Below, one piece after another: positions 2,157 to 49,901 of a DNA stretch of 64,000 bases. Under the pieces are notes generated by a model, which searched no databases, was not told the DNA's origin, and saw only the letters and a list, made by a program, of their open reading frames with translations. Positions within the stretch are counted from its first letter, which is position 1; each line of letters begins with the position of its first letter. Location of the stretch: assembly GCF_029888045.1 (NCBI RefSeq), contig NZ_JARXRN010000025.1, positions 402,368 to 466,367 of the forward strand. Direction: 5' to 3'. A program made the position numbers and the translations under genes. Source of the DNA: Luteimonas rhizosphaericola (GTDB lineage Bacteria > Pseudomonadota > Gammaproteobacteria > Xanthomonadales > Xanthomonadaceae).

Positions 2157-2908
2157 CAGCTGCAGGCCCGGGACGGGCGAGTCCGGCGCACGGCCCGGGT
2201 GCCGACGCCGGCGGCGCCGGCTTGGGCCAAAGTCGGATGACGGATGCGGGCCGCGCGCCTCAGGCTGAGTCCGTCCGCCGTCCCGCCTCGTCGCCCGCTC
2301 GGCGCCGCGGGGCCCTCACGCGGCACACCACGCGATGATGTGAAAGGCGTTCCACGGCGCGGTGCAGGGCTGCGCGACGCCCGAATACAGGCCGGAACTG
2401 CATGCGCAACGCACATTTTTTCCTGCGCAGTGCTGCGTGAAGACGCTGCGGTTTCCACGGCAACGATCGCGCTGTCATGCGCTTCGCGCCGTCTTGCTGC
2501 ACTGCAAAGTGACACTCCGCGTAACGCCATGTTATCAAATCAGCGCGTTAATGTTAGCGCTAACAAAAATAACAACTGCAGGGAAGCAGGGCCGGGGCCG
2601 TGAAACACGACGACCGCATGCCCGCCGCCGAAGGACGCAACAGCGACCGGGGCGACGGGGCGGCGCGCGTGGGGAGAGAACCCGGTGGAGAGTGTTGATC
2701 GATACGCGGAAGGCGGACGGCGCCGCGGTTGCCCGGAGGAGGGCGTCATCGAAGGATTCCTACTGAAAGTCATGCATAACGGGGAGGGCAGTCGGATGAA
2801 TACGTGCAGATTCAAGTCCCGCACTGAAGCGGGTGGCGGGCCGGTCCCGCCACCACGCGCCAGCGACGTGCTTTTCTTCGCTCCAATCCAGTGCTGAGGA
2901 CATATTCC
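2157..2908 (+). other. Long intergenic leader upstream of TBDR 1
   Basis: This stretch of about 750 bases holds no convincing gene. ORFs reading through it are arginine/proline-rich frame shadows. It contains the LacI-type operator at 2552-2565, followed by an A/T-rich patch suited to a promoter, and then about 340 bases of leader before the TBDR start at 2909. A ribosome binding site, GAGGA, lies at 2896-2900. Confidence 0.5.
2552..2565. promoter_or_regulatory. Perfect palindromic LacI-family operator upstream of TBDR
   Basis: TGTTAGCGCTAACA is a perfect 14-base palindrome with central CG in an A/T-rich island. Its half-site (TGTTAGC) differs from the one at 1307-1320 (TGACAAC), so a different LacI/GalR-family repressor is implied. 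No lacI-type gene is in the window. It is the likely sugar-responsive operator for the receptor at 2909. Confidence 0.72.
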
Positions 2909-5900
2909 ATGAACCATAAGTTGAAGGGCCTGAAGTCGAAGGCGATGTTCACCTTCGTCGGTGGCATGCTCGTCATCAATCCCGCTTTCGCGCAGGACCC
3001 TGCCCCGCAGCAGCCCGCCGCGCAGCAGACCCCGGCCACCGGCCAGGATGCTTCCACGCTCGACACCATCGTCGTCACGGGCCTGCGCAACAGCCTCGAG
3101 AACTCGATGGGGATCAAGCGCGACACCGCCGGTGTCGTCGACGCGATCAGCGCCGAGGACATCGGCAAGTTCCCAGACACCAACCTCGCCGAGTCGCTGC
3201 AGCGCATCACCGGCATCTCGATCGAACGCCGCAACGGCGAGGGCGCGCAGATCACGGCGCGCGGCTTCGGCCCCGGCTACAACATGGTCACGCTCAACGG
3301 CCGCCAGATCCCGGGTGCCGACGCATTCGGCAACGGCGACTCGGTCACGGGCGGCACAGGCGCCGGCACCCGCGGCTTCAACTTCGCCCAGCTGGCGTCC
3401 GAGGCGATCAGCGGCATCACGGTCTACAAGACCGGCCGCTCGGACGTCCCCAGCGGCGGCATCGGCGCCACGGTCGACATCCTGACCAACCGCCCGTTGA
3501 ACCTGCCCGCCGGCCTGACGATGAACGCGGGCCTGAAGCTCGGCAGCGATCAGGCGCAGGTGATCGGCGACAGCATCACGCCCGAGATCTCGTCGATCAT
3601 CAGCTTCGCCAGCGACGACAAGCGCTGGGGCGCCAGCCTGAGCACGAGCTTCCAGAACCGCAAGGGCGGCGAAGTCCAGGCGACCGAGAACGAGTGGCGC
3701 CTGTCGCGCTGGACCGGGACCCCGACGGCCTGGGGCGACCGGGTGGAAGTGATCAACGCGCCGGCGGAGGGCTCGCTGTATTCGGTGCCGGCCGACCTGC
3801 GCTATGCGTTCTCCAACTTCGAGCGCACGCGCATCAATGCCCAGGGCACGCTGCAGTTCGCGCCGACCGATGCGCTCACCCTGACCCTCGACTACACCCA
3901 CTCGACCAACGAGATCGCCGAGGACCGCGGCGAGATGACCCAGTGGCTCAACCAGGGTCCATTCTCGCGCATCGAGTTCGACACCAGCGGCCCGGTGGCG
4001 GTGCCGACCTACATCCGCGAGATCGTGGGCACCAAGGACTTCGGCTACGAGCAGCAGCGCCAGGAGCAGAAGTACAAGCTGGACTCGATCGGGTTCAATG
4101 CCAACTGGCAGGCGACCGATCGCCTGAGCTTCGAGTTCGACGCCCACCGCACCGAGAACAAGAGCCTGCCGAACGACTCGATCACGGGCGCCAGCTCGAC
4201 CGCATTCTCGTTCGCCGGCACCAGCGCGTGCCAGTCCGCCGGCGGCCCGTACTGCGGCGGCAACTGGGCGCAGGAGTACTGGTTCAACACCGGCCTGCCG
4301 ATCATGGCGCGGACCTGGTATCCGGAATCGCCGGACTCGGACGACGCCTTCAACGACGTCAATGGGGTCGTCAACCCGGCGTTCCCGCCGGAGCAGGTGG
4401 GCACCCAGATCCAGCGCATCTGGTACTCGCGCCAGGACAGCAAGATCGAGCAGGGCCGGATCGACGGCGCGTTCGACTTCGACAACGGTCGGCTGTCGTT
4501 CGGTGTCGATTCGTCCAAGGTGCAGATGCGCCGCCTGACCTCGAACGACAACCAGCAGGTGCTCGGAAACTGGAGCGTCAACAACGTCGGCGAGGAGCCG
4601 GGCTTCCAGGACCTGATCCGTCCGATCAACATCGCGGGGCTGTTCGACGACTACAGCACCAACGGTGCGCCGCAGAACGCCTGGTGGGGCAATGCCAGCC
4701 AGCTGGCCCAGTGGGCCACCGGCTTCTACGGTACCCCTTCGAACTTCAACGGCCAGTACAACAACGACAACACGATCGAGGAAAAGACCAGCGCCGCGTA
4801 CCTCCAGTACGAGTTCGACGGTGAGCTGGGCACGATGCCGTTCAACCTCGTCGTGGGTGCGCGCTACGAACAGACCGACCTCACGTCCGTGTCGTCGCTG
4901 CAGGTGCCGCAGTCGATCAACTGGAACGGCGATAACGACTTCGCGATCACCCCGTCCGCCGAACAGCAGCCCTTCTCGGAGGAAGCCGAGTACAACTACT
5001 GGCTGCCGAACCTGGACTTCAGCCTCGACTTCACCAGTTCGCTGAAGGGTCGCGTGTCGCTCAGCCAGACCATCGCGCGGGCGCCGTACGGCAACCTCTA
5101 CGCCGGGCCGACCGCGAACGCGCCGAACGGCTCGGTGCTGCTGGGATTCCGCGCCACCGGTAGCGCGCAGAACCCTGCGCTGCTGCCGCTCGAGTCCGAC
5201 AACCTCGACGTGGCGCTGGAGTGGTATTTCGCCCCGGCCAGCTACGTGTCGCTCACATACTTCGACAAGCGCGTGAACAACTTCGTCGGCAACAGCCAGG
5301 TGACGGAGAACCTGTACGGCCTGCGCGACCCGACCGGTGGGCCCGATGCGCAAGCGGCGCTGGAGTTTTTGAACAGCGCCGCGTGCGAAGCGCAGGTCGG
5401 TCCCGGTGCGGCCGTCCATGCCTGCGGCGCCAATGCGATTGCCCTGTTCACGGCAGCCGCACTGCTGCGCAATGCCGACGTGACCGGTGGCCTGGCCGCT
5501 TACAACGGAACCGACGCGCAGTGGAATGCAATGGAACAGCTGGTGCGCCAACCCGGACGCGCATTCGTCGGCGAGGCGGACGATCCGCTGTACATGTTCA
5601 ACGTCAACCGTCCGCTCAACCAGCAGAAGGCCAATCTCGATGGCTTCGAGCTCGGCAGCCAGTACTTCTTCGGCGACAGCGGCTTCGGCATCCAGGCGAA
5701 CTACACCAAGGTCGACGGGGATGTCGGTATCGACGACGGCGCCGCTCCGGGCGTCCAGCAGTTCGCGCTGCAGGGCCTTAGCGACACTGCCAATGCGGTG
5801 TTCATGTACGAGAAGTACGGTTGGACCGCGCGTCTGGCCTGGAACTGGCGCGACGAGTATCTGTTCGCCGCGAACCAGAACGGATCCAACACCAACCCGT

Positions 5901-6091
5901 ACTATGTGGAGGAGTACCAGCAGTGGGACCTCAGCGTGACCAAGCAGCTGAGCGATAACTGGGCGGTAGGCCTGGAAGCGATCAATCTGACGGGCGAGGA
6001 CGTCCGCTGGCGTGCGCGTAGCGAACTCCAGATGGTTCGTCTGATCGACCAGAGCCCGCGCTACATGGCAGCAATCCGCTACACCTTCTGA
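2909..6091 (+). CDS. TonB-dependent receptor, Xanthomonas/Caulobacter carbohydrate type (TBDR 1)
   Basis: An outer-membrane active transporter of 1060 aa. A signal peptide ends near NPAFA-QD. A TonB-box-like LDTIVVTG follows, then the plug domain (DAISAEDIGKFPDTNLAESL, ITARGFGPGYNMVTLNGRQI) and a long beta-barrel ending in the aromatic RYTF typical of outer-membrane proteins. The plug wording places it in the TIGR01782-like clade used by Xanthomonas and Caulobacter for oligosaccharide uptake. The ATG at 2909 follows GAGGA at 2896-2900, so the in-frame GTG at 2891 is rejected. A LacI operator lies upstream and a terminator directly after it. Substrate unknown. Confidence 0.95.
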   Translation: MNHKLKGLKSKAMFTFVGGMLVINPAFAQDPAPQQPAAQQTPATGQDASTLDTIVVTGLRNSLENSMGIKRDTAGVVDAISAEDIGKFPDTNLAESLQRITGISIERRNGEGAQITARGFGPGYNMVTLNGRQIPGADAFGNGDSVTGGTGAGTRGFNFAQLASEAISGITVYKTGRSDVPSGGIGATVDILTNRPLNLPAGLTMNAGLKLGSDQAQVIGDSITPEISSIISFASDDKRWGASLSTSFQNRKGGEVQATENEWRLSRWTGTPTAWGDRVEVINAPAEGSLYSVPADLRYAFSNFERTRINAQGTLQFAPTDALTLTLDYTHSTNEIAEDRGEMTQWLNQGPFSRIEFDTSGPVAVPTYIREIVGTKDFGYEQQRQEQKYKLDSIGFNANWQATDRLSFEFDAHRTENKSLPNDSITGASSTAFSFAGTSACQSAGGPYCGGNWAQEYWFNTGLPIMARTWYPESPDSDDAFNDVNGVVNPAFPPEQVGTQIQRIWYSRQDSKIEQGRIDGAFDFDNGRLSFGVDSSKVQMRRLTSNDNQQVLGNWSVNNVGEEPGFQDLIRPINIAGLFDDYSTNGAPQNAWWGNASQLAQWATGFYGTPSNFNGQYNNDNTIEEKTSAAYLQYEFDGELGTMPFNLVVGARYEQTDLTSVSSLQVPQSINWNGDNDFAITPSAEQQPFSEEAEYNYWLPNLDFSLDFTSSLKGRVSLSQTIARAPYGNLYAGPTANAPNGSVLLGFRATGSAQNPALLPLESDNLDVALEWYFAPASYVSLTYFDKRVNNFVGNSQVTENLYGLRDPTGGPDAQAALEFLNSAACEAQVGPGAAVHACGANAIALFTAAALLRNADVTGGLAAYNGTDAQWNAMEQLVRQPGRAFVGEADDPLYMFNVNRPLNQQKANLDGFELGSQYFFGDSGFGIQANYTKVDGDVGIDDGAAPGVQQFALQGLSDTANAVFMYEKYGWTARLAWNWRDEYLFAANQNGSNTNPYYVEEYQQWDLSVTKQLSDNWAVGLEAINLTGEDVRWRARSELQMVRLIDQSPRYMAAIRYTF

Positions 6092-6130
6092 CGCCGAACC
6101 TCTCCAAGGCCCAGATGGTGTGAAGGATGG

Positions 6131-6159
6131 GGCCGCTGCGCGCGCAGCGGCCCTTTTTC
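6131..6159 (+). terminator. Rho-independent terminator after TBDR 1
   Basis: GGCCGCTG-CGCGCG-CAGCGGCC forms a perfect stem followed by C and five T residues, 40 bases after the TBDR stop. It separates the receptor transcript from the SapC gene at 6291, so the downstream cluster needs readthrough or its own promoter. Confidence 0.85.
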
Positions 6160-6290
6160 ATGGCCTGTCCGCGCCTCGATTTCCGCGCGCCGGACGGGCA
6201 TGATGGACATGCGGCGCGGCCTGCATGGCGCGAGTACGAATTCTTTCCGGGGCGCGCTGCCAGCGGTCGCCCCGCCCCGCCGGAACCGAC

Positions 6291-7043
6291 ATGGCGCGAT
6301 ACGAACTGCTCGACAACGTGGCCCACAAGGACCTGCGCGTGGTCACGCGCTTCGGTGCGGGCAACGACGACCCCGCGGGCCTGGTCCCCGCCTTCCCGAC
6401 CGAGTTCGCGGAGCTGCAGCGCGAGTACCCGATCTTCCTGCGCAAAGAGGCCGACGGCGGCTTCCATGCCGTCGCCCTGCTCGGCTTCGATGCCGACGAG
6501 AACCTGTATCTGGACGGCGAGCGATGGAATGCCGGCTATCTGCCCGGCGCGATCGCGCGCGGCCCGTTCCTGATCGGTTTCCAGGAGCAGATGCAGGACG
6601 GCACGCTGACGCGCGAGCCGGTGATCCACGTCGACCTCGACCACCCGCGCGTGTCCCGCGACGGGCAGGGCGTGGCGGTGTTCCTTCCCAAGGGCGGCCA
6701 CAGCCCGTACCTGGAGCACGTGACCACCGTGCTCAAGGGCATCCATGACGGGACCGAGGCGGGCCGTGCGATGTACGCATCGCTCGACGCGCTGGGCCTG
6801 ATCCAGCCGGTGGAGCTGGACCTGAAGTTCGACGACGTCCATGGCGCGCGCCTGACCGGCCTGCACGGCATCGATCGCGAGTGCCTCGCCGGGCTCGATG
6901 CCGGGCAGCTGCACGGCCTGCACCGGTCGGGTCTGCTCGAGGGCGTGTACCTGATGCTGTCCTCGCTGTACAACGTGCGCCGCCTGATCGCCGAGAAGCA
7001 GCGCCGGCTGCGTGCCCAGGCCGAGGCGGAGCGGGCCGGCTGA
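6291..7043 (+). CDS. SapC family protein
   Basis: A protein of 250 aa starting MARYELLDNVAHKDLRV matches the SapC family (PF07277) in length and in the motif DNVAHKDLRV near the N-terminus and FPTEFAELQREYPIFLR. The family's biochemical role is unproven. In Xanthomonas and Caulobacter it recurs beside TBDRs with flavin halogenase homologues. The start at 6291 is chosen because the upstream 22-codon extension lacks family similarity. No signal peptide is seen, so it is probably cytoplasmic. The next gene begins 4 bases after its stop, which suggests co-translation. Confidence 0.88.
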   Translation: MARYELLDNVAHKDLRVVTRFGAGNDDPAGLVPAFPTEFAELQREYPIFLRKEADGGFHAVALLGFDADENLYLDGERWNAGYLPGAIARGPFLIGFQEQMQDGTLTREPVIHVDLDHPRVSRDGQGVAVFLPKGGHSPYLEHVTTVLKGIHDGTEAGRAMYASLDALGLIQPVELDLKFDDVHGARLTGLHGIDRECLAGLDAGQLHGLHRSGLLEGVYLMLSSLYNVRRLIAEKQRRLRAQAEAERAG

Positions 7044-7047
7044 GGCC

Positions 7048-8070
7048 ATGGCCGCCGTGCCCGCACCGGTCCGCGAACTCGACGGCTGCCGTCCGGACGC
7101 GCTGCCGCTGCAGGCCCTGCTCGAGGGTGGCGAACCGGTCCTGCTGAAGGGCATCGCCGCCGGCTGGAGCCTGGTCGAAGCCGGGCTCGAATCGACGCAG
7201 GCCGCGATGGCGCACCTGCGCGCGCACGACAACGGCCGCCCGTTGCCCTACTCGTGGGGTCCGCCGGAGACGGGCGGGCGCCCGTTCTACACCGCCGATT
7301 TCACCGCGCTCAACACCCAGGCGTTGCGCGGTACGCTCGCGACGGTGCTGGACGAGATCGCCGCGCACCTGGACGACGCTCACCCGCCGACCCACTACAT
7401 CGCCTCGGTGCCGGTCGACAGCGTGCTTCCGGGGTTGCGCGTGCGCAACGACCTGGATTTCGCCGCCCACGGCATCGACGCGCCGCCGGCGATCTGGATC
7501 GGCAACCGCATCACCGCCTCGTGCCACTACGACGCCCCCGACAACATCGCCTGCTGCGCCGTCGGCCGGCGCCGCTTCACCCTGTTCCCGCCGGAGCAGG
7601 TCCACAACCTGTATCCCGGTCCGCTGGATCCCACCCCGGGCGGCCAGGCGGTGAGCGTGGTCGATTTCGATGCGCCGGACTTCGAGCGTTATCCGCGTTT
7701 CCGCGAGGCGCTCGAGCACGCGCGCAGCGCGGTGCTGGCGCCTGGCGATGCGATCTTCATCCCCAGCATGTGGTGGCATCACGTGCAGGGGCTGGAGCCG
7801 TTCAACGTGCTGGTCAACTACTGGTGGAGCAGCATGCCGGCGTGGATTCCCACGCCGATGCACGCGCTCTACCACGCGCTGTGGTCGATCCGCGACCGGC
7901 CCGAGCGCGAAAAGCAGGCCTGGCGCGAGATCTTCGACTACTACGTGTTCGGTCCCGCGGAACGGGCGGGCGAACACCTGCCGGAGCCGGCGCGCAAGGC
8001 GCTCGCGCCGATCGACGAGACCACGGCGCGCCAGCTGCGCGCGTGGCTGATCGCCAGGCTCAACCGCTGA
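7048..8070 (+). CDS. Cupin-like (cupin_8/JmjC fold) Fe(II) oxygenase homologue
   Basis: The protein is 340 aa. The facial-triad motif is visible as His160-Tyr-Asp162 (TASCHYDAPDNIACC) with a distal histidine at 244/245 (IFIPSMWWHHVQGLEPFNVLVNYWW), as in cupin_8/JmjC 2-oxoglutarate dioxygenases. The Xanthomonas literature sometimes calls these Pass1-related. The substrate is unknown. Translation likely begins at the ATG at 7048, 4 bases after the sapC-like stop, with GAGG of the stop region as a weak binding site. The gene sits between the SapC gene and two halogenase homologues, so it probably acts on the same substrate as they do. Confidence 0.88.
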   Translation: MAAVPAPVRELDGCRPDALPLQALLEGGEPVLLKGIAAGWSLVEAGLESTQAAMAHLRAHDNGRPLPYSWGPPETGGRPFYTADFTALNTQALRGTLATVLDEIAAHLDDAHPPTHYIASVPVDSVLPGLRVRNDLDFAAHGIDAPPAIWIGNRITASCHYDAPDNIACCAVGRRRFTLFPPEQVHNLYPGPLDPTPGGQAVSVVDFDAPDFERYPRFREALEHARSAVLAPGDAIFIPSMWWHHVQGLEPFNVLVNYWWSSMPAWIPTPMHALYHALWSIRDRPEREKQAWREIFDYYVFGPAERAGEHLPEPARKALAPIDETTARQLRAWLIARLNR

Positions 8071-8091
8071 CCGGCGTGCCGGGGAGGGCAC

Positions 8092-9678
8092 ATGGGCACA
8101 TCGAGGGTGCGCAAGGTCGTCATTGCCGGGGGCGGGACCGCCGGCTGGCTGGCCGCGGCGGTCCTGTCGCACCAGTTCCGCGACCTGCTGGACATCACCC
8201 TGGTCGAATCCGAGCAGATCGGCACGATCGGCGTGGGCGAATCGACCATCCCGCCGATCCGCCGGCTGCACCAGCTGCTGCGGATCGACGAGCGCGAGTT
8301 CATGCGCGCCACCTCGGCCAGCTTCAAGCTCTCGATCTCGTTCGAGGACTGGCTGCGGCCGGGGCGGCAGTTCTTCCATCCCTTCGGCTACACCGGGCTG
8401 GGCACCTGGGCCTGCGAGTTCCACCACTTCTGGCTGGCGGCGCAGCAGCGGGGCATCAAGGTTCCGCTGGCGGAATTCAGCCGCGAGGCGATGGCCTCGC
8501 GCGAGCGGAGATTCCTGATCTCCGGCCGCGAGGTGGGCGCGAACGAGTGGACCACGCGCCAGGGCGGCGCGACCGGTGCGCAGGGTCAGGCCGAACTGAA
8601 CTACGCGTACCACCTGGATGCCGGGCTCTATGCGCGGTTCCTGCGACGCTTCGCGGAGGGCTACGGGCTGCGCCGCATCGAAGGCCGCATCGCCGAGGTG
8701 GTGCTCGCGCCCGAGTCGGGCTTCGTCCAGTCGCTGCGGCTGGACGACGGGCGGCTCGTCGAGGGCGACCTATTCATCGACTGCAGCGGCTTCCGCGGGC
8801 TGCTGATCGAGCAGGCGCTGCAGACCGGCTACGAGGACTGGAGCCACTGGCTGCCCTGCGACCGCGCCGTGGCGCTGCAGACGCGGCTGGAAGGGCCCGC
8901 GGTGCCGTACACCCGCGCGATCGCGCACGAGGCCGGATGGCGCTGGCAGATCCCGCTGCAGCACCGCGTCGGCAACGGCTGGGTGTACTGCAGCCGGCAC
9001 ATGAGCGACGACGAGGCGCGCCGGCGCCTGTTGCGGGAAGCCAGCGGCACGCCGATCCGGGACCCGATGGTCGTGCCGTTCACCACCGGTCGGCGGCGCC
9101 TGGCATGGAACCGCAACGTGGTGGCGATGGGGCTGTCGAGCGGTTTCGTCGAGCCGCTGGAGTCGACCAGCATCCACATGGTGGTCTCGGCCGCGGTGCG
9201 CCTGGTGCAGATGTTCCCGATGGAGGGCATCGCCCCGGAGATGGTGGCGCGCTACAACGCCATCAGCCGCCACGAGATGGAGGACGTGCGCGATTTCATC
9301 ATCCTGCACTACCACGCCAATGCGCGCGACGAGCCGCTGTGGCGCGAGTGCCGGGACATGGCGATCCCCGACTCGCTGGCCGAGCGCATCGCGCTGTTCC
9401 GCGAGCGCGCCTACGTCTGGCAGGACGAGGGCGACCTGTTCCGCACCGATTCCTGGCTGCACGTGATGCTGGGCCAGGGGATCGCACCGCAACAGTTCCA
9501 CCCCCTGGGGCTGGCCTTGCCCGAGCCGGAGATCCGGCGCCTGTTCGACACCGTGCGCCAGCCGATCCGCGCCGCGGTGGAGGCGATGCCGTCGCATTCG
9601 GACTTCCTGCGGCAGTACTGCCCGGCGGATGCCGCGGTGTGGGCGGCAGGCGCACCGGCGGCGACGGCCGGCGCATGA
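8092..9678 (+). CDS. Flavin-dependent tryptophan halogenase family protein 1
   Basis: The protein of 528 aa has the FAD dinucleotide motif GGGTAG at residues 13-18 and the conserved lysine at position 79 (SASFKLSISF), equivalent to the hypohalous-acid-binding Lys79 of PrnA. The halogenase signature WRWQIP is at 283-288 and the PLEST segment near 365 carries the catalytic-type glutamate. All landmarks of the tryptophan halogenase family (PF04820) are therefore kept. An FADH2-supplying reductase is not encoded nearby. True halogenation has not been shown for this TBDR-linked subclade, so the chemistry is inferred from the family. It is followed by a paralogue. Confidence 0.9.
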   Translation: MGTSRVRKVVIAGGGTAGWLAAAVLSHQFRDLLDITLVESEQIGTIGVGESTIPPIRRLHQLLRIDEREFMRATSASFKLSISFEDWLRPGRQFFHPFGYTGLGTWACEFHHFWLAAQQRGIKVPLAEFSREAMASRERRFLISGREVGANEWTTRQGGATGAQGQAELNYAYHLDAGLYARFLRRFAEGYGLRRIEGRIAEVVLAPESGFVQSLRLDDGRLVEGDLFIDCSGFRGLLIEQALQTGYEDWSHWLPCDRAVALQTRLEGPAVPYTRAIAHEAGWRWQIPLQHRVGNGWVYCSRHMSDDEARRRLLREASGTPIRDPMVVPFTTGRRRLAWNRNVVAMGLSSGFVEPLESTSIHMVVSAAVRLVQMFPMEGIAPEMVARYNAISRHEMEDVRDFIILHYHANARDEPLWRECRDMAIPDSLAERIALFRERAYVWQDEGDLFRTDSWLHVMLGQGIAPQQFHPLGLALPEPEIRRLFDTVRQPIRAAVEAMPSHSDFLRQYCPADAAVWAAGAPAATAGA

Positions 9679-9729
9679 TGGAGGACCGTCGCGCAGGCGC
9701 GGCGGAATGACGATCGAGGAGTGCACGAG

Positions 9730-11370
9730 TTGAACGATGTGAAGCGCGGGATCCGCAAGGTGGTGATCGCCGGCGGCGGCACCGCGGGCTGGGTGGCGGC
9801 GTGCGCGCTGACACACCAGTTCCGCGAACTGCTGGAGGTGACCCTGGTCGAGTCCGAACAGATCGGCACCGTGGGCGTGGGCGAGTCGACCATCCCCACG
9901 ATCCGCACCTTCCACCGCCTGCTGGGGATCGACGAACGCGAGTTCATGAGCTCGGTGGCCGCGAGCTTCAAGCTCTCGATCTCGTTCGAGAACTGGCTGC
10001 GCCCGGGGCAGCGGTACTTCCATCCCTTCGGCCTGACCGGCCTGGGCAGCTGGGCGTGCGAGTTCCACCATTTCTGGCTCGACAGCCTGCGCCGCGGAAT
10101 GACGTCGGAGCTGGGCGATTACTGCCTGGAAACCGTGGCCTCGCGCGTGGACCGCTTTTCGCTGCCCGGCCACCAGGTCGGCGGGGCCCAGCAGTGGTCG
10201 ACGCGCTGGGGCAACCAGGCGATGGCGCCCGAGCGGCTGGAGGTCAACTACGCCTACCATTTCGACGCCGGGCTGTACGCGGCCTACATGCGCGAGCGCG
10301 CCGAACGGCAGGGGCTGGTGCGCGTGGAAGGCAAGATCCGCCAGGTGCGCCAGCATCCGGAGACCGGCTACGTCGAAGCGCTGGTGCTCGAGGATGGCAC
10401 CGTGCTGGAAGGCGACCTGTTCATCGACTGCACCGGCGGGCGCGCGGTGCTGAGCGAGCAGGCGCTGGGCACCGGCTACGAGGACTGGAACCACTGGCTG
10501 CCGAGCAACCGGGCGGTGGCCCTGCAGACCGAGGCCGATGGTCCGGCGGTGCCCTACACCCGCGCCATCGCGCACGAGGCGGGCTGGCACTGGAAGATCG
10601 CCCTGCAGCACCGGATCGGCTGCGGCATCGTGTTCTCCGACGCGCACATGTCCGACGACGAGGCGACCGCGAAGCTGCTGGCGGAGAACCCCGCCAGACC
10701 GCTGCGCGACCCGTGGATCATCCCGTTCCGCACCGGGCGCCGGCGCAAGGCCTGGAACAAGAACGTGGTCGCGCTGGGCTTGGCGAGCGGCTTCATCGAA
10801 CCGCTGGAGTCGACCAGCATCCACCTCACCCTCAGCGGGGTCGCGCGGCTGCTCAAGCTGTTCCCGGCCGAGGGCATCGACGAGTCGATGGTGCAGCGCT
10901 ACAACGACATCAGCCGCGCCGAGATGGAGCACGTGCGCGACTTCATCATCCTGCACTACCACCTCAACCAGCGCGACGAGCCGATGTGGCAGCAGGTGCG
11001 GCACATGGACCTGCCGGACGACCTCGCCCACCGCATCGGGATGTTCCGCGATCGCGCGCATGCCTCGCAGGGCGAGGACGAGCTGTTCCGGCTCGATTCC
11101 TGGACCCACTGCATGCTCGGCCAGGGCGTGGTGCCGAAGGCGCACCATCCGCTGACCCGTGCGCTGCCCGACGACGCCATGCAGCGCCTGTTCGACGGCA
11201 TCCGCAAGCCGATCGAACGCGCCGTGGCCGCCATGCCCAGCCACCAGCAGTTCCTGGACAGCTACTGCAAGGCGCCGCCATCGGCCTGGGAGCTGATGTA
11301 CGAGCGGGCGCGCGCCCACGCCCGGGTGACCGGCAAGGTCGCGGGTGTCGGCGGCGGACTGGCGACGTGA
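9730..11370 (+). CDS. Flavin-dependent tryptophan halogenase family protein 2
   Basis: A paralogue of the preceding gene: the two align end to end with long near-identical blocks such as VIAGGGTAGW, ESEQIGT, IDEREFM, SFKLSISFE, EPLESTSIH and MEHVRDFIILHYH (MEDVRDFIILHYH in copy 1). Lys81 matches catalytic Lys79. The signature WxWxIP is altered to WHWKIA at 286-291 (Ala for Pro), a departure from canonical halogenases. The start is taken as the TTG at 9730, eight bases after GAGGAG (9716-9721). The GTG at 9721 overlaps that binding site. The product is then 546 aa. Role unproven; possibly a diverged halogenase or a flavin monooxygenase. Confidence 0.88.
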   Translation: MNDVKRGIRKVVIAGGGTAGWVAACALTHQFRELLEVTLVESEQIGTVGVGESTIPTIRTFHRLLGIDEREFMSSVAASFKLSISFENWLRPGQRYFHPFGLTGLGSWACEFHHFWLDSLRRGMTSELGDYCLETVASRVDRFSLPGHQVGGAQQWSTRWGNQAMAPERLEVNYAYHFDAGLYAAYMRERAERQGLVRVEGKIRQVRQHPETGYVEALVLEDGTVLEGDLFIDCTGGRAVLSEQALGTGYEDWNHWLPSNRAVALQTEADGPAVPYTRAIAHEAGWHWKIALQHRIGCGIVFSDAHMSDDEATAKLLAENPARPLRDPWIIPFRTGRRRKAWNKNVVALGLASGFIEPLESTSIHLTLSGVARLLKLFPAEGIDESMVQRYNDISRAEMEHVRDFIILHYHLNQRDEPMWQQVRHMDLPDDLAHRIGMFRDRAHASQGEDELFRLDSWTHCMLGQGVVPKAHHPLTRALPDDAMQRLFDGIRKPIERAVAAMPSHQQFLDSYCKAPPSAWELMYERARAHARVTGKVAGVGGGLAT

Positions 11371-11377
11371 CGGCGCG

Positions 11378-12076
11378 ATGTTGATCCAGCCGCACCCCGG
11401 CCTGCGGCTGCAGGCCCGCCGCATCGGCGCGGAGGGCGCGCCGTTGCTGGTGATCGACCAGGCGGCGGCCGATCCCGACCGCCTGGTGCGCAAGGCCGCG
11501 CGCGGCCACTTCACGCCGCAGGGCACGCTGTTCCCCGGGCTGCGCATCCGCGCGCCGCTGTCGTACGAAATGTTCCTGGAGCAGCTGCTGCGGCCGCTGC
11601 TGGCGCCGCACTTCGGCCTGCCCGCCGACGGCCGCTTCACCTTCCCGATGTGCCACTACTCGCTGGTCACCCTGCCACCGGAACGGCTCGCGTTCCTGCA
11701 GCGCGTGCCGCATGTCGATTCGGTGCAGGGCAACGGCCTGGCGACCATGCACTACCTGTTCCGGGGCGACTGGGGCGGGACCGCGTTCTACCGCCATCGC
11801 GGCACCGGCTTCGAGTCGGTGGACGAAACGCGCCAGGCGGGCTATTTCGCGATGCTGGAGCAGGAGAGCCGTCGCGAGGCCGCCACCGACGGCTACATCC
11901 GCGGCGATTCCCCGCTGTTCGAACGCATCGACGCGGTCGAGGGCGTGTTCAACCGGCTGGTCGTCTACCGGCGCAACTCGCTGCATTCGGGCGACATCGA
12001 CAACGCCCGCATCCCGCCGGCCGACGCGCTGGCCGGGCGGCTGTCGATCAACGGCTTCATCGACATCCTCGCCTGA
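11378..12076 (+). CDS. DUF6445 family protein, 2OG-Fe(II) oxygenase-like
   Basis: The 232-aa product (MLIQPHPGLRLQARR) resembles the DUF6445 proteins found beside TBDR/halogenase genes. Histidine-rich segments (MHYLFRGDWGGTAFYRHR and VVYRRNSLHSGDI) resemble the iron-ligand strands of 2-oxoglutarate-dependent dioxygenases. The gene starts 8 bases after the second halogenase stop and closes the cluster. It would be the second candidate non-heme iron enzyme of the set. I infer an oxidative tailoring role; the substrate is unknown. Confidence 0.75.
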   Translation: MLIQPHPGLRLQARRIGAEGAPLLVIDQAAADPDRLVRKAARGHFTPQGTLFPGLRIRAPLSYEMFLEQLLRPLLAPHFGLPADGRFTFPMCHYSLVTLPPERLAFLQRVPHVDSVQGNGLATMHYLFRGDWGGTAFYRHRGTGFESVDETRQAGYFAMLEQESRREAATDGYIRGDSPLFERIDAVEGVFNRLVVYRRNSLHSGDIDNARIPPADALAGRLSINGFIDILA

Positions 12077-12133
12077 ACGGCGTGGCTGCGCGCGTCGCGG
12101 AGGGCGCGACGCGGGGTCGCGTAAAATGCGTCG

Positions 12134-14314
12134 ATGGATGTGTCCCACCTGATCGACGGGCTGAACCCGGCCCAGCGCGAAGCCGTGTCCGCGCCGCCCG
12201 GCCATTACCTGGTGCTGGCGGGCGCCGGCAGCGGCAAGACCCGCGTGCTCACCCACCGCATCGCCTGGCTGAACGAGGTGGTCGGGGTGCCGGTGCACGG
12301 CATCTTCGCCGTCACCTTCACCAACAAGGCCGCCGGCGAGATGCGCCACCGCGCCGATGCGCTGCTGCGCAACGGCTCGCGCGGCCTGTGGATCGGCACC
12401 TTCCACGGACTGGCGCACCGCCTGCTGCGCCTGCACTGGCAGGACGCGAAGCTGCCCGAAGGCTTCCAGATCCTCGACAGCGACGACCAGCTGCGCCTGG
12501 TCAAGCGCGTAGTCCAGCAGCTGGAACTGGACGAGGCGCGCTTCCCGCCGCGCCAGATCGCGTGGTGGATCAACGGCCAGAAGGACGAGGGCCGCCGGCC
12601 GCAGCACATCCAGTCCGGCGGCGACGAGTGGTCGCAGGCGATGCTGAAGAGCTACGCGCTCTACCAGGAACGCTGCGATCGCGCCGGCCTGGTCGATTTC
12701 GCCGAGATCCTGCTGCGCGCGCACGAGCTGCTGCGCGACACGCCCGCGCTGCTGGCCCACTACCGCCAGCGCTTCGGCCAGCTGATGGTGGACGAGTTCC
12801 AGGACACCAACGGCGTGCAGTACGGCTTCGTGCGCCTGCTCGCCGGCGACACCGGTCAGGTGTTCGTGGTCGGCGACGACGACCAGTCGATCTACGGCTG
12901 GCGCGGCGCCAAGGTCGAGAACATGCAGCGGTTCCTGCGCGATTTCCCCGGCGCGCACACCATCCGCCTGGAGCAGAACTACCGCTCCAGCGCCAACATC
13001 CTCGGCGCGGCCAACGCGGTGATCGCGCACAACCCGGAGCGCCTGGGCAAGCAGCTGTGGACCGACAGCGGCGAGGGCGAGCCGATCGACCTGTACGCGG
13101 CCTACAACGAGATCGACGAGGCGCGCTTCGTGGTCGAGCGGATCGCGCAGTGGGTGCAGGGCGGCGGCAGCCACGGCGACTGCGCGGTGCTCTACCGCAG
13201 CAACGCGCAGTCGCGCGCGTTCGAAGAGGCGCTGCTGGCCGAGCAGGTGCCGTATCGCGTGTACGGCGGCGTGCGCTTCTTCGAGCGCGCCGAGATCAAG
13301 GACACCCTGGCCTACCTGCGGCTGGTGGCCAACCGCGCGGACGATGCGGCTTTCGAGCGCGCGGTCAACACGCCCACGCGCGGGATCGGCGAGCGCACGC
13401 TGGACGAGGTGCGGCGGCGGGCGCGCACCGACGGGGTGTCGCTGTGGGAGGCTTCGCTGCGCGTGCAGCAGGGCGGCGCGCTCGCCGCACGCGCGCGCAA
13501 CGCGCTGGCGGGCTTCCACCAGCTGCTCGACGCGCTGGCCACGGAAGTGTCCGAGCTGCCGCTCAAGGACAAGATCGACCATGTCTTGCTGCGCTCGGGC
13601 CTGCGCCAGCACTACACCAACGAGTCCAAGGGCGCGGCGGACTCGCGCGTGGACAACCTCGACGAACTGGTGTCGGTCGCCTCGCGATTCGTGAAGGGCG
13701 ACGAAGAGGATGCCGCGCAGCTGAGCGAGCTGGTGGCGTTCCTCGCCTACGCGTCGCTCGAAGCGGGCGAGGGCCAGGCCCAGGCCGGCGAGGACGGCGT
13801 GCAGCTGATGACGCTGCACAGCGCCAAGGGGCTGGAGTTCCCGCTCGTGTTCCTGGCGGGTATGGAGGAAGGGCTGTTCCCGAACGCGCGCTCGATCGAG
13901 GAGAGCGGCCGGCTGGAGGAAGAGCGCCGGCTGGCGTACGTCGGCATCACCCGCGCGCGGCAGAAGCTGGTGCTCAGCTACGCCGAATCCCGGCGCCTGC
14001 ACGGCCAGGACATGTACGGCGTGCCGTCGCGCTTCCTGCGCGAGATCCCGTCGGCGCTGCTGAGCGAGGTGCGTCCGCGGCTGCAGGTGTCGCGCCCGGC
14101 CTTCAGCCCGCAGCCGCGGCGCGACTGGGGGCATGCGTCGCTGGACCAGTCGCCCGGGCTCAAGCTCGGGCAGAACGTGGTCCACGCCAAGTTCGGCAGC
14201 GGCATCGTCACCGATCTCGAGGGCAGCGGCGCGCACGCGCGGGTGCAGGTGAACTTCGAGGAAGCCGGCTCGAAGTGGCTGGTGCTGGCGTACGCGAACC
14301 TGCAGGTGGCCTGA
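12134..14314 (+). CDS. uvrD: UvrD/Rep-type DNA helicase II
   Basis: A superfamily 1A 3'-5' DNA helicase of 726 aa. Walker A AGAGSGKT lies at residues 29-36, motif II is DEFQDTNGVQYG, motif III VVGDDDQSIYGWRGA, motif IV QNYRSS, motif V MTLHSAKGLEFPLVFLAG and motif VI RRLAYVGITRARQKL. The C-terminal tail ends in the UvrD-like segment GQNVVHAKFGSGIVTDLEGSG. It unwinds DNA after UvrAB incision and in mismatch repair. Length and domain order match full-length UvrD. The ATG at 12134 directly precedes the conserved start MDVSHLIDGLNPAQREAV. Confidence 0.95.
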   Translation: MDVSHLIDGLNPAQREAVSAPPGHYLVLAGAGSGKTRVLTHRIAWLNEVVGVPVHGIFAVTFTNKAAGEMRHRADALLRNGSRGLWIGTFHGLAHRLLRLHWQDAKLPEGFQILDSDDQLRLVKRVVQQLELDEARFPPRQIAWWINGQKDEGRRPQHIQSGGDEWSQAMLKSYALYQERCDRAGLVDFAEILLRAHELLRDTPALLAHYRQRFGQLMVDEFQDTNGVQYGFVRLLAGDTGQVFVVGDDDQSIYGWRGAKVENMQRFLRDFPGAHTIRLEQNYRSSANILGAANAVIAHNPERLGKQLWTDSGEGEPIDLYAAYNEIDEARFVVERIAQWVQGGGSHGDCAVLYRSNAQSRAFEEALLAEQVPYRVYGGVRFFERAEIKDTLAYLRLVANRADDAAFERAVNTPTRGIGERTLDEVRRRARTDGVSLWEASLRVQQGGALAARARNALAGFHQLLDALATEVSELPLKDKIDHVLLRSGLRQHYTNESKGAADSRVDNLDELVSVASRFVKGDEEDAAQLSELVAFLAYASLEAGEGQAQAGEDGVQLMTLHSAKGLEFPLVFLAGMEEGLFPNARSIEESGRLEEERRLAYVGITRARQKLVLSYAESRRLHGQDMYGVPSRFLREIPSALLSEVRPRLQVSRPAFSPQPRRDWGHASLDQSPGLKLGQNVVHAKFGSGIVTDLEGSGAHARVQVNFEEAGSKWLVLAYANLQVA

Positions 14315-47030: not shown

Positions 47031-49901
47031 GTGACACCCGCCCGCCTGCACCGAAAGACGCTTTTCTGCAGTATCGCCCTGGCCCTGCTGCCGTCCGCGG
47101 CCTTCGCCCAGCAGGCCGGGGCCGACACCACCGCCGATCCTCAGGCCGGCCAGCCCGCCGCGGAGTCGATCGAATCGCTCGACACCGTGATCGTCACCGG
47201 CGTGCGCGGCAGCCTCGCGCGCGCCACCGAACTCAAGCGCGAATCCTCGACCGTGCAGGACTCGATCAGCGCGCTGGAGCTGGGCAAGTTCCCGGACGAC
47301 AACGTGGCCGATTCGCTCAGCCACATCACCGGCGTGTCGATCTCGCGCACCGCCGGCGGCGAAGGCCAGAAGGTGAGCGTGCGCGGCCTCGGGCCGGAGT
47401 ACACGCTCACCACCTTCAACGGACGCATCCTCGCCACCGACGGCGCCGGGCGCGATTTCGCCTACGACGTGCTGCCCGCGGACGTGATCAGCGGCGCCGA
47501 CGTGATCAAAGGCGCGCAGGCCTCGCTCACCGAGGGCGCGATCGGCGGCCTGATCAACCTGCGCTCGGCCAGCCCGTTCGACCAGGCCGGCCAGCATGGC
47601 GTGGTGCGGCTGGAGGGCGACCGCAACCTGATGTCCGAGCAGAACGGCGGCAAGCTCTCGGCCGCCTACAGCAACACCTTCGCCGACGACACCTTCGGCG
47701 TGCTGCTGGGCGTGGTCTACGGGCGCCGCAAGGACCGCACCGACGTGGCCGGCAACGACGGCGGCTGGAGCCGCAACGCAGACCCCACCGACGAGAGCTG
47801 GCTGTGGGGCAACACCTGGGGCGGGCACATCGACCCCAACGGCAACGGCGTGCTGGACGAGGAGGAATACGGCCTGATCGGCCCGGGCCAGTTCCGCATC
47901 GGCTCGATCCTGGAGGAGAAGAAGCGCAAGGCGTTCTCGGCGAAACTCGAGTGGCGGCCGAGCGACAGCGTGAAGATCTCGGTCGACGGGCTGAAGACGC
48001 GCCTGGACTCGCCGCAGGTGGGCTACCAGCAGTCGTACTACCCGCTGTTCGCGCCGGGCCGCTGGTCGAACATGACGATCGACAACGGCATCGTCACCGA
48101 CTTCACCATGGACAATCCGGATCCGGAACTGCGGCTAAACCCCGAACTGCTGAACCAGACCGAGTACCGCGTGGTCGATACCGACCTGTACGGCGTCAAC
48201 GGCGAGTGGAAGGTCAACGACGACTTCACCGTCACCGCCGACCTGTACCGCTCGACCTCCAGCCGCTATTCCGGCGGCCAGGACTCGTACGTGGTGCTGC
48301 GCATGGCGCGGCCGAACACCGCCCGCATCTGGCTCGACGGGGGCATCCCCAACGTCGACGCGGACTTCGACGACGGGCGCAACCTGATCGACGGCCTGGC
48401 CAACGGCGAATTCGGCCCCAGCGATTTCAACACCCACTACTTCTCGCTGGCCGGCGACAACATCGACGACCGCATCAACGGCGGCTCGGTGGCCGGCGAG
48501 CTGTACGTCGGCGAGCTCGGGATCGAACGGCTGAAGTTCGGCTTCAACCGCACCGACCGCCGCAAGGCGCGCGACCTGGTCAACAACGCGCTCAACGGCG
48601 GCGCCGACTACTACTCCAGCGGCAACGCGATCAACGTGGGCGACCTCGGCGGCAGCGTGCTGTCGGACACCTTCAACCTGCCCAACTTCATGAGCGGCGT
48701 GTCGTCGGTGTTCCCGCGCTCGTTCCTGGGCTTCGACGTGCCGGGCTACATCGCCGCGCTGCGGGCCTACGACGGCAATCCGCGTCCCGGCGGCGGCACC
48801 TACGACTACGCCGCGGCCGCGCCGGTGTGGAACCCGCTGCAGAGCTACCGCGTGAGCGAGAAGACCAACGCGGCCTATATCGAACTCGACCTCGCCGGCG
48901 ACCGCTGGGAGGGCAACGCCGGCCTGCGCCTGGTCAAGACCCAGACCACCGCCCAGGCCTGGGACGCGAAGATCCTGAGCATCGTCGAGTTCGGGGCGTT
49001 CAACTACTCCGCGGTGTACGACGAGCCGAGCTCGGTGTACCAGGAGGCCGAGTACACGTACGCCCTGCCGACCGCCAACTTCACCTGGCACTTCACCGAC
49101 GAGCTGCAGCTGCGCCTGGGCGCGGCCAAGACCATGGCCCGCCCGGCGGTGAGCCAGCTGGCGCCCACCAACACCACCGAAAGCGTGTCCTGGGGCGAGT
49201 TCACCCAGATCTACGGCGGCAACGCCGAGCTCAAGCCCTACACCGCGCGCCAGGGCGACGTGTCGCTGGAGTGGTACTTCTCCGAGAACTCGATCGCCAA
49301 CTTCGCCGTGTTCCACAAGCGCATCGAGAACCAGATCACCACCAGCTGGGAGCCGGGCCAGGACATCGGCGTGGGGCCGATCGTCGACACCGACGGCAAC
49401 CCCATCACCGACGGACCGACCCTGTTCAACGTGATGCGCCCGATCAACGGCGACTACGCCAAGGTGCGCGGCTTCGAGGCCGGCCTGCAGCACTTCTGGG
49501 ACAACGGCTTCGGCTTCCGCGCCCAGTACACGCGCAACTGGTCGAAGAGCTGGGTGGCCGACGAGGAGCGCCCGCTGGAAGGCATCGCGCCGTCGGTGTA
49601 CTCGCTGGGCGTGATGTACGAGAAGGGCGCGTGGTCCGCCGGCGCGACCGCCGACCACACCGACGGTTTCGTCACCGCGATCAACGTGCTGGGGGGCGGC
49701 TACAACGAGCAGGCGGATCCGATCACCTGGCTCACCGCGCACGTCTCCTACAACGTCAACGACGACTTCACCGTGTCGCTGGAGGGCAGCAACCTGCTCG
49801 ACGAGGAGAACACCTACAGCATCAACGGCAATCCGCTGCTGTCGCAGGGCTACTATCGCTACGGGCGTTCGCTCACCCTGGGGCTGAGCTACCGCTTCTG
49901 A
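47031..49901 (+). CDS. TonB-dependent receptor in amino-sugar locus (TBDR 2)
   Basis: A 956-aa outer-membrane receptor of the same clade as TBDR 1. The signal peptide ends SAAFA-QQ, the TonB box is LDTVIVTG, and the plug contains DSISALELGKFPDDNVADSL, VSVRGLGPEYTLTTFNGR and GAIGGLINLRSA. The barrel ends LTLGLSYRF. The start is a GTG at 47031 behind GAGGAGAG. The AgaR-type operators immediately upstream predict induction by GalNAc or galactosamine-containing glycans. The DUF4832 gene follows on the same strand after a hairpin. Confidence 0.95.
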   Translation: MTPARLHRKTLFCSIALALLPSAAFAQQAGADTTADPQAGQPAAESIESLDTVIVTGVRGSLARATELKRESSTVQDSISALELGKFPDDNVADSLSHITGVSISRTAGGEGQKVSVRGLGPEYTLTTFNGRILATDGAGRDFAYDVLPADVISGADVIKGAQASLTEGAIGGLINLRSASPFDQAGQHGVVRLEGDRNLMSEQNGGKLSAAYSNTFADDTFGVLLGVVYGRRKDRTDVAGNDGGWSRNADPTDESWLWGNTWGGHIDPNGNGVLDEEEYGLIGPGQFRIGSILEEKKRKAFSAKLEWRPSDSVKISVDGLKTRLDSPQVGYQQSYYPLFAPGRWSNMTIDNGIVTDFTMDNPDPELRLNPELLNQTEYRVVDTDLYGVNGEWKVNDDFTVTADLYRSTSSRYSGGQDSYVVLRMARPNTARIWLDGGIPNVDADFDDGRNLIDGLANGEFGPSDFNTHYFSLAGDNIDDRINGGSVAGELYVGELGIERLKFGFNRTDRRKARDLVNNALNGGADYYSSGNAINVGDLGGSVLSDTFNLPNFMSGVSSVFPRSFLGFDVPGYIAALRAYDGNPRPGGGTYDYAAAAPVWNPLQSYRVSEKTNAAYIELDLAGDRWEGNAGLRLVKTQTTAQAWDAKILSIVEFGAFNYSAVYDEPSSVYQEAEYTYALPTANFTWHFTDELQLRLGAAKTMARPAVSQLAPTNTTESVSWGEFTQIYGGNAELKPYTARQGDVSLEWYFSENSIANFAVFHKRIENQITTSWEPGQDIGVGPIVDTDGNPITDGPTLFNVMRPINGDYAKVRGFEAGLQHFWDNGFGFRAQYTRNWSKSWVADEERPLEGIAPSVYSLGVMYEKGAWSAGATADHTDGFVTAINVLGGGYNEQADPITWLTAHVSYNVNDDFTVSLEGSNLLDEENTYSINGNPLLSQGYYRYGRSLTLGLSYRF

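What the first reader, a model, noticed from the sequence alone, without database searches (positions are those of the whole stretch)
6291..12076. Compact oxidative cluster of unknown purpose: SapC, cupin/JmjC-like oxygenase, two flavin halogenase homologues and a DUF6445 protein behind a glycan-type TBDR
Seen: five tightly spaced genes (gaps of 4 to 51 bases) with intact flavin-halogenase and HxD...H iron motifs, directly after a carbohydrate-type TonB receptor. Known: similar gene sets recur beside TBDRs in Xanthomonas and Caulobacter, but no product or reaction is established. There are no biosynthetic scaffold genes (NRPS, PKS) and no flavin reductase, so this is not an ordinary halogenated natural-product cluster. 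Inference: these enzymes may modify the receptor, a peptide, or the imported sugar ligand. This is my best candidate for an undescribed system.
Basis: partly seen in the sequence, partly recalled or inferred. Interest (0 to 1): 0.8.

Follow-up and report, generated by a model that had tools for sequence, protein, structure and literature searches.

The report
Sugar-receptor oxidative enzyme module
A set of oxidising and halogenating enzymes travels as a unit with one family of outer-membrane sugar receptors in many bacteria; what it modifies is unknown, and the receptor itself is the leading candidate.

Summary
The five genes are real, tightly spaced and catalytically intact, in a Luteimonas genome. 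SapC, an FIH-like cupin hydroxylase and a halogenase travel as a block behind one clade of TIGR01782 receptors: of the 80 best SapC loci kept from named genomes, 78 carry receptor, cupin and halogenase in one orientation. The gene trees mirror each other, paralogous sets included. DUF6445, in 30 of 80, folds as a prolyl-hydroxylase-like 2OG-Fe(II) oxygenase. SapC gives a confident model with no PDB fold match. Related halogenases also lie beside other TonB receptors (29 of 40 loci). Reduced forms exist: eight receptors keep only the cupin beside them, and four genomes without any halogenase still have receptor and cupin. The parts are separable and meet at the receptor, which argues against a linear natural-product pathway. 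My best reading, about 0.4, is modification of the receptor in the cytoplasm. The residue test gave no support: the clade's conserved Trp residues persist in genomes without a halogenase. The linkage is well supported; the substrate is not established.

The parts
2909..6091 (+). TonB-dependent receptor, TIGR01782 family, SapC-linked clade (ORF open from GTG 2891; ATG 2909 precedes a signal-peptide-like N-terminus, judged by eye)
   Evidence: TIGR01782 723.5 bits; Plug and TonB barrel; clade (row L131 is this gene)
6129..6154 (+). intrinsic-terminator-like hairpin between receptor and SapC
   Evidence: similar hairpin within 150 bases of the receptor stop in 20 of 27 clusters, against 86 of 540 mononucleotide shuffles; the built-in scan of window 2500-12300 finds no overall excess (3 found, 4.1 expected)
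6291..7043 (+). SapC (PF07277), no signal-like N-terminus, confident model with no PDB fold match
7048..8070 (+). Cupin_8 / JmjC-type 2OG oxygenase, nearest solved relatives FIH and JMJD5 (ORF open from GTG 7012)
   Evidence: PF13621 227.7 bits; FIH 3.4e-21; HxD...H in 27 of 27 clusters
8092..9678 (+). flavin-dependent halogenase 1, an extra copy: absent from the same-genus cluster L073; a two-halogenase layout is also seen in L208 and L209 (Luteimonas)
   Evidence: PF04820 624.2 bits; trees and layouts; motifs
9721..11370 (+). flavin-dependent halogenase 2 (ORF from GTG), groups with the single halogenase of other type-1 clusters; BrvH/Xcc4156 group
   Evidence: PF04820 605.3 bits; 9luq 528, 6y1w 504, 6frl 430 bits; tree
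11378..12076 (+). DUF6445, predicted 2OG-Fe(II) oxygenase with prolyl-hydroxylase-like fold
   Evidence: PF20043 259.7 bits; H113xD115...H204, R222 invariant in 20 of 20 (numbering of the aligned sequence, one residue ahead of the ATG); fold matches P3H1, HygX, Tpa1, P4H

Best explanation
Shown: SapC, the FIH-like cupin and a halogenase (often a second halogenase and the P4H-like DUF6445 oxygenase) form a co-inherited accessory module of one clade of outer-membrane sugar-type receptors, with the enzyme genes placed behind the receptor gene and, in most clusters, behind a terminator-like hairpin. Inferred: the module acts on the receptor polypeptide. SapC, with no signal peptide, would bind the nascent or Sec-bound receptor in the cytoplasm and present segments to the cupin and DUF6445 (hydroxylation) and to the halogenase (bromination or chlorination of an aromatic side chain). 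The modified receptor would then be exported and inserted in the outer membrane with altered ligand binding, stability or sensitivity to phage or bacteriocin. The enzymes are separable, so the modifications would be separate marks on one target, not steps of one pathway.
For: 1) The receptor is the constant partner: 78 of 80 SapC loci, 27 of 27 cluster-type loci, mirror trees. 2) Neighbouring sugar genes vary (GH3, GH1, xylose-type genes; GH92; GH13, GH31, GH9, GH39, GH97) while a TonB receptor stays: 21 of 25 strong halogenases in 7 genomes lie within 5 kb of a TIGR01782 receptor (hand count; these genomes were chosen as carriers of the module), as do 4 of 4 in the own genome; 29 of 40 loci outside SapC clusters have a TonB-type receptor within 5 kb of a halogenase (3 of these 40 are also among the 25). 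No random-gene control was run. 3) Reduced forms: 8 of 8 fetched receptors lacking SapC keep the cupin alone, in two places of the tree; L322 has receptor + halogenase alone. 4) The closest solved relatives include protein hydroxylases (FIH, JMJD5; P3H1, Tpa1, P4H), and the halogenase belongs to the open-site group for which peptides were already suggested (PMC7336383, PMC5945002; passages). 5) SapC, cupin and DUF6445 lack signal-like N-termini (and by eye). 6) Terminator-like hairpin between receptor and enzymes in 20 of 27 clusters, fitting an abundant substrate and scarce enzymes.
Against: The Trp, His, Asn and Tyr residues typical of this receptor clade are kept in all 10 receptors without a linked halogenase, including those of four genomes with no halogenase at E <= 1e-20, so those Trp residues are not explained by halogenation. 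Receptors without a linked cupin (L182, L322) lose no informative residue. The fold matches of DUF6445 also include small-molecule oxygenases (HygX, AndA, SptF, OkaE), and those of the cupin include C2orf60 and JMJD7. For the halogenases the hydropathy check does not separate their N-termini from the receptor's (1.50 and 1.57 against 1.61); no signal-peptide predictor was run. In 11 of 40 non-SapC halogenase loci no TonB receptor was found within 5 kb. Operon inheritance alone can make trees agree. Two of 80 SapC loci have SapC without the rest (L222, L277). No proteomic data were available.
Confidence: 0.4

Rival explanations
1. Ligand tailoring: the receptor imports aromatic or phenolic glycosides or feruloylated oligosaccharides, and the cytoplasmic oxygenases and halogenase hydroxylate or halogenate the released aglycone for detoxification or catabolism.
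For: GH3, GH1, sugar transporter, LacI and xylose-type genes lie beside a number of clusters; the solved relatives of this halogenase group act on free indole or indole derivatives (PMC5945002, PMC7336383; passages).
Against: Linked sugar genes vary across unrelated glycans, including GH92 and starch-type GH13/GH31 enzymes. 61 of 80 named loci have none of the seven gene types searched for within the stretch held. Aromatic-catabolism genes were not looked for systematically.
Confidence: 0.2
2. The enzymes make a small halogenated molecule or modify a short peptide (RiPP-like, siderophore-like or signal) that is exported and retrieved by the receptor.
For: TonB receptors take up such molecules (established knowledge); the peptide halogenase MibH is a structural precedent named in PMC5945002 (passage).
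Against: No scaffold gene among the proteins scanned. Receptor-to-SapC gaps are about 83-447 bp (median 150.5) in the 16 clusters without an intervening halogenase, and the window gap holds only a 27-codon + strand ORF opening with GTG and two nested minus-strand ORFs. Small ORFs were not compared across clusters, so a precursor is not excluded.
Confidence: 0.2
3. The halogenase and cupin no longer modify anything but serve as flavin/oxygen/2OG sensors or chaperones for receptor expression.
For: The parts are separable and tied to the receptor gene; SapC has no enzyme-like match.
Against: The catalytic Lys is kept in 41 of 42 halogenase rows (the other is a C-terminal fragment that does not cover it) and Glu in 42 of 42; the cupin triad in 27 of 27; DUF6445 HxD...H + R in 20 of 20.
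Confidence: 0.1

Closest known systems
Flavin-dependent halogenases BrvH (6frl) and Xcc4156 (6y1w), non-tryptophan group
   Same: With 9luq (528 bits) the best solved relatives of halogenase 2: 6y1w 504, 6frl 430 bits; act on indole, open active site, native substrate unknown (PMC5945002, PMC7336383, PMC8269204; passages)
   Different: The receptor-SapC-cupin context is not discussed in the passages seen; 'TonB', 'SapC' and 'cupin' do not occur in the main text of PMC5945002
FIH / JMJD5 (JmjC-type protein hydroxylases)
   Same: Sequence match E 3.4e-21 to FIH, HxD...H triad
   Different: Bacterial and receptor-linked; substrate unknown
Prolyl hydroxylases P3H1, Tpa1, algal P4H (2OG-Fe(II))
   Same: DUF6445 model matches at Foldseek E 1e-4 to 1e-3; HxD...H + R
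   Different: TM-scores near 0.45-0.5, no PDB sequence match at E <= 1; small-molecule oxygenases score similarly; substrate unknown
CUT loci (carbohydrate utilization containing TBDRs), Blanvillain et al. 2007, PMC1790865 (passages)
   Same: Receptors of this kind in sugar-gene neighbourhoods
   Different: 'Halogenase', 'SapC' and 'cupin' do not occur in its main text
QhpG / LodB / GoxB protein-modifying flavoproteins
   Same: Weak sequence match of the halogenases; precedent for flavoproteins acting on protein side chains (recalled)
   Different: Scores 22-34 bits against cut-offs of 240-400: not members

Membership tests
TIGR01782 TonB receptor | score above curated cut-off 310 | tested here: met
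   723.5 bits
SapC PF07277 | score above 28.9 | tested here: met
   198.1 bits
Flavin-dependent halogenase (PF04820, variant A) | GxGxxG, catalytic Lys and Glu, WxWxIP (motif roles recalled) | tested here: met
   the second halogenase reads WxWxIA
Free-tryptophan halogenase (PrnA/RebH type) | halogenates free Trp | not testable with these tools
   best PDB matches are 9luq, Xcc4156 and BrvH, above the Trp halogenases; BrvH and Xcc4156 do not act on free Trp (PMC5945002, PMC7336383; passages)
JmjC/Cupin_8 2OG oxygenase | family match and HxD...H metal triad | tested here: met
   activity not tested
2OG-Fe(II) oxygenase, P4H-like (DUF6445) | 2OG-oxygenase fold with HxD...H and a 2OG-binding Arg (roles recalled) | tested here: met
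   enzyme activity not tested
Halogenated natural-product cluster | scaffold biosynthesis genes and flavin reductase beside the halogenase | tested here: not met
   none among 8 window proteins and 18 proteins of the two other own-genome loci; whole window not scanned
RiPP cluster | conserved short precursor gene | tested here: inconclusive
   window gap holds no convincing candidate; small ORFs not compared across clusters
CTQ/amine-dehydrogenase maturation (QhpG, LodB, GoxB) | score above curated cut-off | tested here: not met
   22-34 bits against 240-400
CUT locus | receptor with degradative enzyme, regulator and inner-membrane transporter | tested here: inconclusive
   the adjacent paralogous set has LacI and GH3, and an MFS gene lies between the sets; none within the five-gene cluster itself

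The most novel reading that the evidence does not exclude
Bacteria post-translationally hydroxylate and halogenate their outer-membrane sugar receptors. SapC is a previously unrecognised fold that delivers exported surface proteins (TonB receptors, and adhesins in other genomes) to oxygenases and flavin halogenases in the cytoplasm; this is the missing native function of the BrvH/Xcc4156-type 'orphan' halogenases.
Probability: 0.3. Interest if true: 0.92.

Novelty: new variant of a known kind. Interest (0 to 1): 0.66.

Why it matters
The halogenases related to BrvH and Xcc4156 have solved structures but no known substrate. This work ties the family genetically to TonB receptors, narrows the candidates and makes the question testable by receptor mass spectrometry. 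It predicts DUF6445 to be a 2OG-Fe(II) oxygenase and flags SapC as a confidently modelled fold with no solved match found. If the receptor is the substrate, halogenation and hydroxylation of outer-membrane proteins would be a new layer of control over nutrient uptake.

Tried and rejected
Residue test: W352, W561, W678, H419, N289, N316 and Y335 looked like candidate marks typical of the receptor clade. All are kept in the receptors without a linked halogenase, so they cannot be called halogenation sites. A P231G change looked suggestive but also occurs in two receptors with full modules, L009 and L340. Residues lost in receptors without a linked cupin, L182 and L322: one conservative change each, nothing informative; both genomes carry a cupin elsewhere.

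Hidden precursor peptide: none convincing in the window gap; not compared across clusters. Xylose link to XCC4120: considered, but the eight named Xanthomonas loci printed (L232, L235, L237, L241, L251, L252, L264 and, as a Stenotrophomonas, L253) show none of the sugar genes searched, so it is not claimed. Natural-product cluster and CTQ maturation rejected on what was scanned.

SapC fold search in PDB, VIA and the viral library gave no match at E <= 0.001 or Z >= 2. Nine paper searches on halogenase, receptor, SapC and related terms showed no title or abstract start describing the module. Most listed papers were not opened, among them three that hold both 'tryptophan halogenase' and 'TonB-dependent' (PMC3377617, PMC3684763, PMC11337851; listing only). 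The library lacks most subscription papers and all preprints. Passages only were read of PMC4911050, where the SapC hit is a clay name, and PMC11340318, which lists one transposon insertion in a tryptophan halogenase under genes affecting colony morphology.

Rows dropped or partial: receptors under 800 aa (L087 among them) and the L073 partial copy were left out of the receptor tree; its row L132 is the same gene as L010 and was mislabelled unlinked. In the column test the unlinked set excluded L182, L132 and L172, and four rows near DUF6445 only were in neither set. L080 was left out of the mirror trees because its stretch ends before the second halogenase, so 26 of 27 were used; the receptors of L087 and L119 and the broken halogenase of L115 entered as partial pieces. 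Alignments A1, A3 and A2 used 42 of 49 and 25 of 49 SapC and 20 of 21 DUF6445 proteins. The 40 non-SapC halogenase loci were chosen by hand for spread, by halogenase place only. In one search only two candidates per genome were scored. Of the receptors without a nearby SapC, G247:C75 was not examined and G205 (L336) ends inside a halogenase gene.
Full report
OBSERVATION. The finding holds. Both halogenases keep the FAD motif, catalytic Lys and Glu; the second reads WxWxIA where the first reads WxWxIP. The cupin keeps HxD...H. The window is from Luteimonas: the nearest SapC relatives in named genomes are 91% (L. saliphila) and 90% (L. kalidii) identical, and both have the same two-halogenase layout. 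Just upstream of the window lies a paralogous set LacI-receptor-SapC-cupin-halogenase (L009), and another contig has a receptor-halogenase pair near a GH92 gene (L010). All 4 full-length halogenase matches of the genome lie within 4 kb of a TIGR01782 receptor; four further matches are weak and partial. The genome has 10 receptors over that family's cut-off.

IS IT A UNIT? Across 151 genomes of the order, SapC occurs in 55, DUF6445 in 47 and strong halogenases (E <= 1e-60) in 77. I fetched 60 stretches, up to 20 kb each, around SapC or DUF6445 hits and mapped them, with the two own-genome loci and the window, using own-genome proteins as queries. SapC occurred in 49 of them. 27 are of the cluster type (score over 150), and all 27 have a receptor, a cupin and at least one halogenase in the same orientation. 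The other 22 belong to a second SapC subfamily in which none of these neighbours was found. An independent scan of named genomes with a SapC profile found 409 relatives; of the best 80 kept, 78 have receptor, cupin and halogenase, and 30 have DUF6445. The two exceptions, L222 and L277, show SapC without the rest; they are on contigs of 10.9 and 5.5 kb, but L222 holds over 8 kb upstream of SapC, enough for a receptor.

CO-INHERITANCE. For the 26 clusters used, distance matrices correlate at 0.915 (receptor-halogenase), 0.863 (SapC-receptor), 0.910 (SapC-halogenase), 0.891 (cupin-receptor), 0.785 (cupin-SapC) and 0.837 (cupin-halogenase), each with 0 of 2000 permutations reaching it. Genomes with two sets (G000, G001, G061, G032) split into the same two types in all four trees. 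Linkage alone can produce this, so it shows a unit of inheritance, not physical contact. The second window halogenase groups with the single halogenase of the other type-1 clusters; the first is an extra copy. Receptors linked to SapC form one clade, whose only member without a cluster in that tree was L182.

TRANSCRIPT LAYOUT. A terminator-like hairpin follows the receptor stop in 20 of 27 clusters, against 86 of 540 mononucleotide shuffles. In the window it is at 6129-6154; the built-in scan of window 2500-12300 finds no overall excess of such hairpins and no sigma-70-like promoter. The likely effect, inferred, is much receptor and little enzyme.

THE PARTS. DUF6445: invariant H-x-D...H and R across 20 aligned proteins; model pLDDT 94.6; best fold matches collagen prolyl 3-hydroxylase P3H1, HygX, Tpa1 and, a little lower, algal P4H, with small-molecule oxygenases such as AndA among them. 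I therefore assign it to 2OG-Fe(II) oxygenases. Cupin: nearest solved proteins are FIH (3.4e-21) and JMJD5; C2orf60 and JMJD7 follow. Halogenase 2: nearest are 9luq, Xcc4156 and BrvH. Published work on the last two says the native substrate is unknown; one suggests peptides and the other larger substrates, by likeness to the peptide halogenase MibH (PMC7336383, PMC5945002; passages). SapC: pLDDT 96.5, best PDB sequence match E 0.051, no Foldseek match at E <= 0.001 in the PDB and none at VIA Z >= 2.

WIDER PATTERN. Strong halogenases sit within 5 kb of a TIGR01782 receptor in 21 of 25 cases in seven genomes, counted by hand; the seven were chosen as carriers of the module, and two of the four exceptions (G061:C22, G032:C12) proved to lie beside the other receptor type below. 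Of 40 further halogenase loci outside SapC clusters (3 of them among the 25), 12 have a TIGR01782-like receptor within 5 kb. Fourteen have a neighbour of one outer-membrane receptor type (mutual profile matches; PF25183 in 14 and PF00593 TonB barrel in 17 of the 30 neighbours scanned), and 3 have a Plug + TonB barrel protein. In 11 none was found. No random-gene control was run. Neighbouring sugar genes vary: GH3, GH1, FGGY kinase, xylose-isomerase-like and sugar transporter, GH92, GH13, GH31, GH97, GH9, GH39 and glucoamylase (only the first 25 families of each table are shown). In the 80 named loci, 61 have none of the seven gene types I searched for within the stretch.

REDUCED MODULES. A profile of the receptor clade found it in 89 of 348 genomes and the cluster-type SapC in 87 of the same 348. 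Eight receptors without SapC nearby were fetched (L328-L335); all eight have the cupin directly behind the receptor and neither SapC nor halogenase in the 17-kb stretch. They fall in two places of the receptor tree. Five of these eight genomes (G203, G096, G068, G081, G131) carry SapC and a halogenase elsewhere; G047, G199 and G165 carry no cluster-type SapC. L337 (G151) keeps SapC (with an internal stop) and cupin but no halogenase; L322 has receptor + halogenase only, in a genome with a full cluster elsewhere. Genomes G047, G199, G165 and G151 have no halogenase at E <= 1e-20. So cupin and halogenase can each be found with the receptor alone, and the receptor-cupin pair persists without any halogenase.

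RESIDUE TEST, NEGATIVE. If a conserved receptor Trp were the halogenation site, receptors in halogenase-less genomes should be free to lose it. They do not: W269, W352, W561, W678, W778, W986, H419, N289, N316 and Y335 are present in all 10 receptors without a linked halogenase. These residues must have another role there. A variable or non-conserved site is not excluded.

MECHANISM. The argument for the receptor as target is by elimination. SapC, cupin and DUF6445 look cytoplasmic by their N-termini; for the halogenases the crude check does not decide, and I rely on their family. The sugar genes vary, no scaffold gene was seen among the proteins scanned, the parts are separable, and the constant partner is a TonB receptor. 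The nearest solved relatives of the two oxygenases include protein hydroxylases. It is an inference, held at about 0.4. The ligand and small-molecule readings remain open.

LITERATURE. Nine full-text searches on these terms listed no paper whose title or abstract start describes the module; most listed papers were not opened. PMC1790865 defines CUT loci, and 'halogenase', 'SapC' and 'cupin' do not occur in its main text. The library omits most subscription papers and all preprints, so prior description elsewhere cannot be excluded.

Noticed in passing
L099:10164-19901, L101:10412-19901, L107:10629-19901: In 3 of the 22 solitary-type SapC loci the next gene is a giant (over 3000 aa, cut by the locus end) secreted-looking, Gly/Ala/Ser/Thr-rich, Arg-poor protein resembling filamentous-haemagglutinin-type adhesins (resemblance judged by eye; no Pfam hit in the first 1945 aa of the L099 one). 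SapC may serve exported surface proteins more widely.
   Followed up: partly
L288-L294, L296, L299, L301-L304, L306: Halogenases of the same superfamily sit beside an outer-membrane receptor type with OMP_b-brl_4 (PF25183) and mostly CarboxypepD_reg domains in 14 loci, a separate receptor-halogenase partnership.
   Followed up: partly
L115; SapC places in G175, G243, G219, G151, G171: Some clusters are decaying: halogenase broken by a stop in L115 (X. arboricola judging by the contig length shared with L264), SapC with one internal TGA in four other genomes and two TAG in G171. Described only.
   Followed up: no
L078, L079, L082, L084: Divergent DUF6445 genes lie near a TonB receptor and a gene that clusters with a GH13 amylase (checked in L082), without SapC.
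   Followed up: no
L312, L316: Loci with three halogenase genes near a TonB receptor; L316 also has a cupin.
   Followed up: no
window 47031-49901: A second TIGR01782 receptor in the window, with no halogenase match near it.
   Followed up: partly
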